A stretch of 64,000 bases of DNA from Mesorhizobium sp. J428 (lineage in GTDB: Bacteria; Pseudomonadota; Alphaproteobacteria; Rhizobiales; Rhizobiaceae). The notes beneath the pieces were generated by a model, which did not search any database, was not told the origin of the DNA, and was given only the letters and a program-made list of their open reading frames with translations. How positions within the stretch are numbered: the first letter of the stretch is position 1; every line of letters starts with the position of its first letter. Below, one piece after another: positions 46,330 to 49,181 of the stretch. The translations under genes and the position numbers were made by a program. The DNA lies in NCBI RefSeq assembly GCF_024699925.1, contig NZ_JAJOMX010000001.1:248001-312000 (forward strand), written 5' to 3'.

Positions 46330-47771
46330 CTACGCATCCTTTTTCTCGACAAGAGCCAGTATTGCGTCCGCAACACCATCGATAAATTCTTCCTCTTTTC
46401 CTGAATCGTCAGGCCATTTCTTGTATAACGTCTCTGCCAGTAGAGGATAATTTTCGTCTACAGAGAAATCAGAGTCGACGATCGGCAATATTCTTCCCTT
46501 TCTATCAATATTCATTGAAATCGCACTGTTAAGTTCTTTATTAGTCCACCCCTTCTTCGAAAATCTATTTGATAGAAAAGGAACAAAGTAGGTCGACTTA
46601 AGAAGACCATGGTTTATCTTCTCTACAATTGAATCTCCCCATACAATACTGCTTTCGTCAAAGAATACCTTTACGCCAAGACTTTCCAGTCTCTCCTTAA
46701 GTTTCCTTATCTTATCTTTATCTTCGCTTGCGTGCGAAAGGAATACATCAAATTCACGCACCATATCGGCCATTTTAATCACCCATTCAGGACTTTTCAG
46801 CCCCGCAACAACAGCTTCTTTGCATAGCTTTGCGAGCACCGGGTCATTAGTGCCGCGAACTTGTCGAATGAAGGATAGCTGACCGGATATATGACTCCAC
46901 ATCATACCATCATCCGCATTTGCACCAATCCAAATTTTCGCTGCCGATGACGCTCCGAATCGCTTGATTGAGTAGATTTTCATCCTCAATCGCGAGATAT
47001 CACGACGCCAGACATTGGCCCTTCGATTTACTATCAGGCCGGTAACCTCCTGACGCTCATACTGAAATAGAAGTCTGGTCTTTGACTGGTTAATCTCAAA
47101 TCCAGAATGCTTGAACGCATCATTAATAGATCGCCCAATCTGAACGACACGATTGCCAAATGCCGGCTCCCAGCTTTGAACTATATCTGCCGGTACATTT
47201 CTCTTACTAGACGATATGGTTATATCGTCAGCGTACCGTGTATACTTAAGCTGCTCTTTCGCCGCGAGCTCGACAAGCCGCTTGTCTAAGTTGTGAGCAA
47301 TAATATTCGCCAGCACAGGTGACGTTGTAGCACCCTGGGGTAATCCGTTGTTGTAAGTCGTAATACGGGCAAGTATGGTTGCAACACGCTCATTGAATCC
47401 AAAATAAGGTGAAATAAATAAACCTCTAATTCTAGCAAAACCAATTGATGGGTAAAAATCCTTTACATCAATATTAAGAACCCACCTTTGCCTCTCGTGA
47501 TACTGAGCATTAGTTAAGAAGGATTGCCCTTTCACATATCCTCTCACAAAAATCTTCGGTTTGTAGTGCGCAACAAGCACTCTAGCAAGCCTATTCTGCG
47601 AGAACGCCAGCCCCTTCTTTGGCGCTGAGATGTTACGAACACCCCCGCGTTTCTTTGGTATCGTGAATTCTCGATAGTAAACGTCCCATCAGAAGCATGC
47701 TGTACAACATAAAAAAATCTCTCTGGGTCAAGACCCAGCGCATGGGCTACGTCTTTCACAGAATGGGCCAT
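46330..47771 (-). CDS. Retron reverse transcriptase fused to a TIR domain (frameshifted)
   Basis: Two frames join to give about 480 residues. The N-terminus (MAHSVKDVAHALGLDPERFF) reads to GTFTIEN; after one missing base at the GAATTC at 47665-47669 it continues TIPKKRGGVRNISAPKKG. Retron hallmarks are NAQYH (about residues 88-92), catalytic TRYADD (near 180) and VTG (near 243). From about 341 a TIR domain begins (REFDVFLSHASEDKDKI), with the putative catalytic Glu in GWTNKEL. RT-TIR fusions are known antiphage retrons whose TIR would deplete NAD+. The AT-rich sequence marks horizontal transfer. Confidence 0.92.
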
Positions 47772-47822
47772 CTGCAATCTGAACAGCGGCCCGCCAAAGC
47801 TTTCTTGAGTGGGGGTATCGAC

Positions 47823-47834
47823 GGCTTGGCCCTC
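47823..47834 (-). repeat. Retron a2 segment
   Basis: This 12-base arm is exactly complementary to a1 at 49134-49145. It is 51 bases upstream of the RT start, on the RT side of the IS. Confidence 0.75.
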
Positions 47835-47964
47835 GCTCTTTACCTTTCAGCGTGTTGCCGGTGGATCATTCCGGCCGGCGCGGCGTTGTGTAGTAACGTT
47901 TCAGCTGACGTTGCCCCCTGGAATGCCCTCGGTTTGAACTGGACTCCGTCGAAAGGAGACGGAG

Positions 47965-48228
47965 ATGAAGAGAAGCCGGTTCACGGAAGACCAGATCATC
48001 GGCGTGCTGAAGGAGCACCAGGCGGGAATCCCGACGGCAGAGCTGTGCCGCAAACACGGGATCTCGGAGGCGACCTTCTACAACTGGCGTAATCGCTATG
48101 GCGGCATGGAAGTGTCGGACGCCCGGCGGCTGAGGAGCCTCGAGGACGAGAACCGGCGGCTGAAGAAGCTACTAGCGGAATCTATGCTGGACGTCGCGAC
48201 GCTGAAGGAAGCACTGGGAAAGTTCTGA
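47965..48228 (+). CDS. IS407-like transposase OrfA
   Basis: An 87-residue DNA-binding protein. A helix-turn-helix (FTEDQIIGVLKEHQAG, then LCRKHGISEATFYNWRNRYG) is followed by a leucine-zipper-like helix (RLRSLEDENRRLKKLLAESM). AAAGGAG lies a few bases before the ATG. It is made alone or joined to OrfB by -1 frameshifting, as in other IS3 elements; GGGAAAG just before the stop is a possible slip site. Confidence 0.95.
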   Translation: MKRSRFTEDQIIGVLKEHQAGIPTAELCRKHGISEATFYNWRNRYGGMEVSDARRLRSLEDENRRLKKLLAESMLDVATLKEALGKF

Positions 48229-48251
48229 CGCCCAGGACAAGGAAGCGCTTC

Positions 48252-49073
48252 GTGGCCTGGGCGATCGAAGAGAAGTGCTACTCGCAGCGGCGTGCCTGCA
48301 GTCTGGTCGGGCTCGACCCGAAGACCTATCGCTATGCGTCGCGGCGACCGGACGATGCCGCGGTGCGGGCGCGGCTGAAAGAGCTGGCGCTTGAGCGGCG
48401 TCGGTTCGGCTATCGGCGGCTGCTCATCCTTCTGCGGCGCGAGGGCATCGAACTGAACCACAAGAAGCTGTTCCGGCTATACCGGGAGGAGCGGCTGACG
48501 GTGAAGAAGCGCGGCGGCCGCAAGCGGGCGCTGGGCACGCGGGCGCCGATGACGCTGCCGCAGGGAGCAAACCAACGATGGAGCCTGGACTTCGTATCCG
48601 ACATGCTCGCCGATGGCAGACGCTTCCGCGTCCTGGTGGTGGTCGACGACTTCACTCGGGAGTGCCTGGCACTCGTGGTCGACACGTCACTGTCGGGCAT
48701 GCGGGTGGCGCGGGAACTGGACGCCATCGTCGAGACGCGCGGCCGACCGCTGATGATCGTCTCCGACAACGGCACCGAGCTGACGTCGCGGGCGATCCTG
48801 CAGTGGCAGGAGGACAACCGCGTCGAGTGGCACTACATCGCGCCGGGCAAGCCGACCCAGAACGGCTTCGTCGAAAGCCTGAACGGCCGCTTGCGCGACG
48901 AATGCCTCAACGAGCACCTGTTCCGCGGCATGGCAGCGGCACGCCGCATCATTGAAGAGTGGAGGATCGACTACAACGAGCACCGGCCACACACGAGCCT
49001 GCGTGGCCTCACCCCGAACGAGTTTGCAAACCGGTCCAGATCGGACCACAAGGAGAACAGAGTCCAGTTATGA
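48252..49073 (+). CDS. IS407-like transposase OrfB (DDE integrase core)
   Basis: A 273-residue transposase from GTG 48252, in the -1 frame relative to orfA. The catalytic triad is visible: Asp in WSLDFVSDMLADG, Asp in MIVSDNGTELTS and Glu in NGFVESLNGRLRDECLN. The C-terminal DYNEHRPHTSLRGLTPNEFA is the family tail. No damage is seen, so the element may be active. Confidence 0.95.
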   Translation: MAWAIEEKCYSQRRACSLVGLDPKTYRYASRRPDDAAVRARLKELALERRRFGYRRLLILLRREGIELNHKKLFRLYREERLTVKKRGGRKRALGTRAPMTLPQGANQRWSLDFVSDMLADGRRFRVLVVVDDFTRECLALVVDTSLSGMRVARELDAIVETRGRPLMIVSDNGTELTSRAILQWQEDNRVEWHYIAPGKPTQNGFVESLNGRLRDECLNEHLFRGMAAARRIIEEWRIDYNEHRPHTSLRGLTPNEFANRSRSDHKENRVQL

Positions 49074-49133
49074 ATGAGGGCTGATCGGGGGCAACGTCAC
49101 AGCGAGTAGCCGTGGATTCAACAGCTCCAACTA

Positions 49134-49145
49134 GAGGGCCAAGCC
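49134..49145 (-). repeat. Retron a1 segment
   Basis: This is the 5' arm of the 12-bp a1/a2 pair, at the predicted transcription start and on the far side of the IS from the RT. Confidence 0.75.
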
Positions 49146-49151
49146 AAGTGT

Positions 49152-49181
49152 AGGCTATTTCCGACCCCTCTTGGTTGTCAA
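49152..49181 (-). promoter_or_regulatory. Predicted retron promoter
   Basis: On the minus strand a consensus -35 TTGACA (49181-49176) is followed, 18 bases later, by a TAGCCT -10-like box (49157-49152). Transcription would start about seven bases on, at the first base of a1. After the IS insertion it can no longer read directly through msd into the RT. Confidence 0.55.

What the first reader, a model, noticed from the sequence alone, without database searches (positions are those of the whole stretch)
46330..49181. Retron-TIR defence locus disrupted by an IS element inside its ncRNA gene
Seen: an RT with the retron hallmarks NAQYH, YADD and VTG and a C-terminal TIR domain; a 12-bp perfect inverted repeat (a1/a2) upstream; and an intact IS3-family element with CAGC duplications between a1 and a2. 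Known: retron RTs need msr-msd RNA flanked by a1/a2, and RT-TIR retrons have been reported as antiphage systems. Inference: the IS severs the 5' part of the ncRNA from msd and should abolish msDNA, giving a natural knockout of a defence system. Removing the IS in silico gives a continuous, about 125-nt ncRNA and a new retron sequence.
Basis: partly seen in the sequence, partly recalled or inferred. Interest (0 to 1): 0.9.

Follow-up and report, generated by a model that had tools for sequence, protein, structure and literature searches.

The report
Retron-TIR broken by inserted IS element
A bacterial anti-phage system of a known kind (a retron whose reverse transcriptase carries a TIR domain) appears to have been put out of action here by a jumping gene that landed inside its RNA gene, and its protein gene is broken as well, which makes it a tidy natural knockout but an ordinary kind of event.

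Summary
The protein belongs to a known family: retron type XII, RT-TIR (PADLOC 1.7e-137; NCBIfam NF042941). Relatives without an IS carry the predicted a1/a2-flanked RNA at this place: 17 of 18 RT-TIR loci have the repeat, its 3' arm ending 579-637 nt before the YADD motif; in the 18th the RNA lies further upstream. A covariance model built from 8 relatives, without the window, matches the two sides of the IS as positions 1-44 (E 2.2e-12) and 45-129 (E 7.6e-14): the halves abut. The IS is an IS3-family element of 1194 bp with 13-bp perfect ends and a CAGC duplication; the genome holds three identical full copies, this one included, hence recent. Its first ~54 residues lie in another frame, with the switch at about 47682. 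So the locus is damaged twice, in RNA and protein; the second lesion could be a sequencing error. Loss of function is inferred. A new member of a known kind: useful, not surprising.

The parts
49104..49147 (-). 5' half of the retron ncRNA: a1 arm and the msr hairpin
   Evidence: Model R1 positions 1-44 of 129, 45.2 bits, E 2.2e-12, cut at the 3' end
49134..49145 (-). a1 arm
   Evidence: 12-bp perfect inverted repeat; in the 8 relatives of A3 99.1% of the cells of this helix are paired
49100..49103 (.). target-site duplication CAGC, distal copy
47906..49099 (+). IS3-family insertion sequence, 1194 bp, 13-bp perfect terminal inverted repeats
47965..48228 (+). IS OrfA (HTH_Tnp_1)
   Evidence: E 1.1e-24
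48252..49073 (+). IS OrfB (rve integrase core; IS3 transposase)
   Evidence: NF033516 237.4 bits against a cut-off of 160
47902..47905 (.). target-site duplication CAGC, proximal copy
47821..47905 (-). 3' half of the retron ncRNA: msd region and a2 arm (47823-47834)
   Evidence: Model R1 positions 45-129 of 129, 50.6 bits, E 7.6e-14, cut at the 5' end
47544..47777 (-). ORF holding the RT N-terminal part, out of frame with the rest; frame switch at about 47682
   Evidence: tblastn with the L008 protein: residues 1-69 aligned in frame -3 (similar only up to about residue 54), residues 55-502 in frame -2 from 47682
46330..47682 (-). rest of the RT (YADD near 47232) and C-terminal TIR domain, without the N-terminus
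   Evidence: PADLOC RT-TIR_XII 1.7e-137, profile 77-472/475 for the 416-aa ORF; 43-472 for the open frame

Best explanation
This is a type XII retron (Retron-TIR) that has most likely lost its function. When intact, as in the relatives, a short RNA with paired a1/a2 ends and an msr hairpin lies just upstream of, or overlapping, the start of the RT-TIR gene; the RT would copy its msd part into msDNA, and the RT-RNA-DNA complex would keep the TIR domain (presumably an NAD-consuming effector) in check until phage infection releases it. Here an IS3-family element sits just 3' of the msr hairpin, so no continuous template RNA can be made, and the RT reading frame is broken close to the N-terminus. 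Shown: family membership, the ncRNA and its conservation in relatives, the exact split by the IS with a target duplication, the frame change in the sequence as given. Inferred: absence of msDNA, loss of defence, the NADase activity of TIR, the restraint of TIR by the RNA complex, and the order of the two lesions.
For: Family. Repeat in place in 17 of 18 RT-TIR loci; the 18th, L046, has the RNA 853 nt before the YADD. Model R1 finds the RNA in all 18: 17 with default filters, 8 of these by construction, and L044 only with filters off (26.6 bits, E 1.3e-6). Five of five E. coli-like RT-TIR loci examined over a wider range also have a long repeat, span 136-148, 766-776 nt before the YADD (no shuffle control). 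Covariation on A3: 98.1% of cells paired against 87.4% in shuffles, 9 pairs with changes on both sides, 0 of 500 shuffles as high on either; hand-anchored arms pair in 215 of 216 cells over 18 rows, at most 90.7% in 1000 shuffles of partners. Split: model positions 1-44 and 45-129; the halves abut in L008 too, 1-45 and 46-130. The own genome has one match to the msr motif with up to 2 mismatches, this one, and no R1 match elsewhere at E 0.001, so no second RNA of this kind rescues it. Recent IS: three full copies 100% identical. Frame change; in the 18 relatives the frame is open for 191-259 residues before the YADD, 494-624 codons in all. Published: a comment on Gao et al. [quoted passage not shown]
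Against: No expression or msDNA data. The frame change rests on one assembly and could be a sequencing error. The msd hairpin of the nearest relatives is irregular and only three consensus pairs fall in that part, so msd boundaries and the branching G are not placed. Arms were chosen by pairing score, which leans towards high pairing; two rows of A3 (L059, L060) are near-identical. In one search one of five measures, further pair types, was reached by 18 of 500 shuffles. R1 gives only one weak match (L062, E 0.15) among the 7 E. coli-like loci (L039, L061-L066), and as weak a one (L012, E 0.12) among 15 loci with weaker RT matches.
Confidence: 0.93

Rival explanations
1. Only the IS insertion is real; the frame change in the RT is a sequencing or assembly error, so the RT-TIR protein is still made, without a template RNA.
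For: A single frame change in a gene that otherwise keeps its motifs and a 452-codon open frame without inner stops; no reads were available.
Against: None direct. The protein set lists the window's own protein at 426 aa, without the N-terminus (P0053), which only shows that the listed prediction has the same break.
Confidence: 0.2
2. The frame change is a regulated (programmed) frameshift and the system is only IS-interrupted.
For: Three other database proteins (P0083, P0085, P0092) are also listed at 426 aa with a start within about two residues of the equivalent position; their DNA was not seen.
Against: All 18 relatives have the N-terminal part in the open frame of the rest; gene callers can also pick an internal start.
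Confidence: 0.03
3. The system is partly active: the IS supplies a promoter towards the RT gene and a shortened RT uses the remaining RNA half.
For: Some IS elements carry outward promoters (recalled, no call).
Against: A simple consensus scan of 47780-49500 shows no promoter-like site on the minus strand (sigma-70 type only); the 3' half lacks a1 and the msr hairpin.
Confidence: 0.03
4. The inverted repeat is chance and the real ncRNA lies elsewhere.
For: A 12-bp repeat at this distance is not rare by itself (my estimate).
Confidence: 0.01

Closest known systems
Retron type XII / Retron-TIR (PADLOC RT-TIR_XII; NCBIfam NF042941)
   Same: Single RT with C-terminal TIR; a1/a2-flanked RNA directly upstream of the RT
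   Different: Here the RNA gene is split by an IS and the RT frame is broken; NF042941 scores 595.1, just under its cut-off of 600, against 683.5 for the intact L003 protein, probably because the N-terminus is missing
Chelatococcus asaccharovorans DSM 6462 locus (L003, NZ_QJJK01000022.1)
   Same: RT-TIR 66% identical, RNA at the same place
   Different: RNA and RT not interrupted
   Same: Protein 74% identical over residues 55-502; the RNA halves abut in it
   Different: Not interrupted; other genus; an integrase-like ORF lies beside it (by eye)
Retron types XI (RT-protease) and I-C (RT-Toprim)
   Same: RT part related
   Different: Other effector domains by the PADLOC names

Membership tests
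Retron type XII (Retron-TIR) | retron-type RT with YADD and VTG | tested here: met
Retron type XII (Retron-TIR) | C-terminal TIR domain fused to the RT | tested here: met
   TIR_2 at residues 279-390 of 416
Retron type XII (Retron-TIR) | complete RT frame (state of this copy, not a test of descent) | tested here: not met
   frame change at about 47682
Retron type XII (Retron-TIR) | msr-msd RNA bounded by a1/a2 upstream of the RT | tested here: met
   both halves recognised, but split by the IS
Retron type XII (Retron-TIR) | branching G and 2'-5' linked msDNA | not testable with these tools
   needs msDNA isolation
Retron type XII (Retron-TIR) | protection against phage | not testable with these tools
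   reported for Retron-TIR in the literature only (passage of PMC7699616)
IS3 family | two ORFs, HTH OrfA and DDE-type OrfB | tested here: met
   OrfA alone scores 54 bits, under the cut-off of 160, OrfB 237.4, over it
IS3 family | terminal inverted repeats and short target duplication | tested here: met
   13-bp ends; 4-bp duplications at 4 of the 5 copies in the genome, none at the C5 copy

The most novel reading that the evidence does not exclude
The two lesions are linked: in Retron-TIR the RNA/msDNA restrains a toxic TIR domain, so loss of the RNA to the IS could be tolerated only together with loss of the RT-TIR frame (or the other way round). Broken Retron-TIR loci would then show protein lesions whenever the RNA is lost, a pattern that can be counted in genomes.
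Probability: 0.2. Interest if true: 0.45.

Novelty: new member of a known kind. Interest (0 to 1): 0.3.

Why it matters
It shows a defence system apparently being lost through a recent IS insertion in a non-coding RNA gene, which a protein-based survey would still count (PADLOC profile) or nearly count (NCBIfam) as present. The comparison also gives a covariation-supported RNA for the Retron-TIR clade around this genome, with a usable model; Rfam has no match to it in 9 relatives at E 0.1. Whether a type XII msr-msd model is already in print I could not establish: Mestre et al. 2020 and Khan et al. 2024 were not held, and PADLOC has msr-msd covariance models (PMC9252829, passages) whose list I did not see.

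Tried and rejected
Rfam: no match in the window at gathering scores; in 9 relatives at E up to 0.1 one match, a microRNA family far under its gathering score and away from the RNA. Literature searches listed no title on a type XII ncRNA or on an IS inside a retron RNA gene; I judged by listings and opened eight papers by passage search only (PMC12548924, PMC12262390, PMC8867640, PMC8565338, PMC9122126, PMC9252829, PMC7699616, PMC12405507). The library holds only part of the literature, so this absence is weak evidence.

Rows dropped: in the family search 20 of 394 genomes matched the RT-TIR profile at E 1e-60; I used the three others that also pass 1e-115 (L008, L009, L010) and took the remaining 16 to be other retron types without classifying them; seven of them were only looked at for repeats. 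Of the 80 viral-contig loci, L038, L057-L060 and the E. coli-like L061-L066 were read; L067-L075 served only as rows, L076-L135 were not used. Plasmid hits: H1 (L039) and H2 (L040) of 11 were opened; L040 gave no clear pair and was not followed. No phage record covered 80% of the query.

MAFFT alignment A1 of 13 RNAs put the a1 arms out of register between clades, so counts were made on the 8-row A3 and on hand-anchored arms. In the narrow range L061-L066 showed nothing consistent; L039, L061, L062, L063 and L066 were re-examined over a wider range, L064 and L065 were not. In one search I entered the YADD place of L039 wrongly (748 nt); one search gives 772. The family-wide RNA search matched 3 of 384 genomes, all with RT-TIR, and did not list the divergent G144 (L010). 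The other RT of the genome (C1:1529769) matches no retron profile among the 25 best shown; best are a generic RT and UG17/UG4.

Full report
What is there. On the minus strand of the window lies an RT-TIR gene. Upstream of it the 12-bp inverted repeat 47823-47834 / 49134-49145, the IS with 13-bp perfect ends and the CAGC duplication are all as described.

The RNA gene. The relatives settle this. Chelatococcus asaccharovorans (L003), G345 (L008), G019 (L009) and an IMG/VR contig (L038) have a continuous RNA at the same place. The set has 18 RT-TIR loci: one, three, nine, five. In 17 the best long-range inverted repeat has a span of 111-149 and its 3' arm ends 579-637 nt before the YADD; each beats all 25 Markov-type shuffles. 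The window value is 591. In the 18th, L046, the test failed at that place (2 of 25 shuffles as good), but model R1 finds the RNA further upstream, 853 nt before the YADD, and its arms can be read there. L044 has the repeat but is missed by R1 with default filters and found with filters off (26.6 bits). Five of five E. coli-like loci examined have a repeat of span 136-148 at 766-776 nt, without a shuffle control.

Covariation. On the 8-row alignment A3 the named structure (a1/a2 plus msr hairpin) has 98.1% of cells paired, 9 pairs with changes on both sides and a covariation score of 0.496 against 0.269 in shuffles; 0 of 500 shuffles reach these three, 18 of 500 reach the number of further pair types; sliding the partner by 1 to 3 columns brings pairing down to 33-54%. 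Rows L059 and L060 are near-identical. With arms anchored by hand over 18 rows (17 relatives and the window), 215 of 216 cells pair, at most 90.7% in 1000 shuffles of partners. Single folds of six relatives lie 3.0 to 8.2 standard deviations below their shuffles; for L009 and L038 one of 200 shuffles folds as well. The loop of the msr hairpin keeps ATCC in all 13 rows of A1 and all 8 of A3, by reading the rows.

The split. Model R1, built from the 8 relatives and not from the window, recognises 49104-49147 as positions 1-44 and 47821-47905 as positions 45-129, E 2.2e-12 and 7.6e-14 for these short stretches. The IS thus sits just 3' of the msr hairpin. The nearest relative read here, L008, shows the site without an IS. 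The only match to the msr motif in the whole genome, up to 2 mismatches, is this one. Against 41 sources R1 matches the window only weakly (37.2 and 31.5 bits), since each match has to run into the IS.

The IS. The genome has three full copies, 100% identical, this one included, and two more that carry a nested element. Four-base duplications flank 4 of the 5 copies. Identity of copies points to recent spread, and the otherwise open RT-TIR frame points to recent decay.

The correction. The first 54 residues of the L008 relative match frame -3 and residues 55-502 match frame -2, with the change at about 47682. The protein set lists the window's own protein at 426 aa, without the N-terminus (P0053). 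All 18 relatives have the N-terminal part in the open frame, 191-259 residues before the YADD. A sequencing error remains possible.

Setting. The locus lies beside carB. In 5 congeners whose carB neighbourhood was compared, similarity to the window ends within about 150 bp after carB and other ORFs follow, different ones by eye. Of the 6 congeners, 4 have no match to the RT-TIR profile at E 0.001 and 2 only weak ones, 3.2e-20 and 1.5e-6. So the retron is patchily held, in a variable place, as defence genes often are (recalled).

Verdict. A doubly damaged, probably recently inactivated member of retron type XII. It is a good illustration and gives a useful RNA model, but it is not a new kind of system.

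Noticed in passing
window 47965-48228; PADLOC PDLC02590: The PADLOC profile named DrmC (88 positions) matches the IS3 OrfA at 4.7e-29 over nearly its full length; it looks like a transposase OrfA model, so it may give false DISARM components.
   Followed up: no
L142, L143 (G000 C1:3322900-3326300 and 4565900-4569300): Two copies of the same IS3 element carry a 1.63-kb element (IS110-like transposase by eye, recalled) at the same inner position, the two inserts differing by at least one base in length, yet have different 4-bp target duplications (AATC, GGTC): either the compound element moves as a unit or the nested element chose the same site twice.
   Followed up: partly
L046 390-497: In this RT-TIR locus the RNA is displaced upstream, with repeated GC-rich blocks between RNA and RT.
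   Followed up: partly
P0083, P0085, P0092: Three other RT-TIR proteins are listed at 426 aa from a start close to that of the broken own protein P0053; either mis-called starts or further N-terminal lesions.
   Followed up: no
L008 1441-1540: The L008 RT frame has no ATG, GTG or TTG before 1537, which is inside the conserved N-terminal block, so its start codon is unclear; the frame is open through the a2 arm.
   Followed up: no
window 46113 onwards, beside carB: The stretch after carB differs among the 5 congeners compared, a possible hotspot for accessory genes.
   Followed up: partly
L039 (E. coli plasmid NZ_CP019281.1): Here too the RT-TIR is annotated as two overlapping genes, RT and TIR, so this copy may also be frame-broken, at another place.
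   Followed up: no
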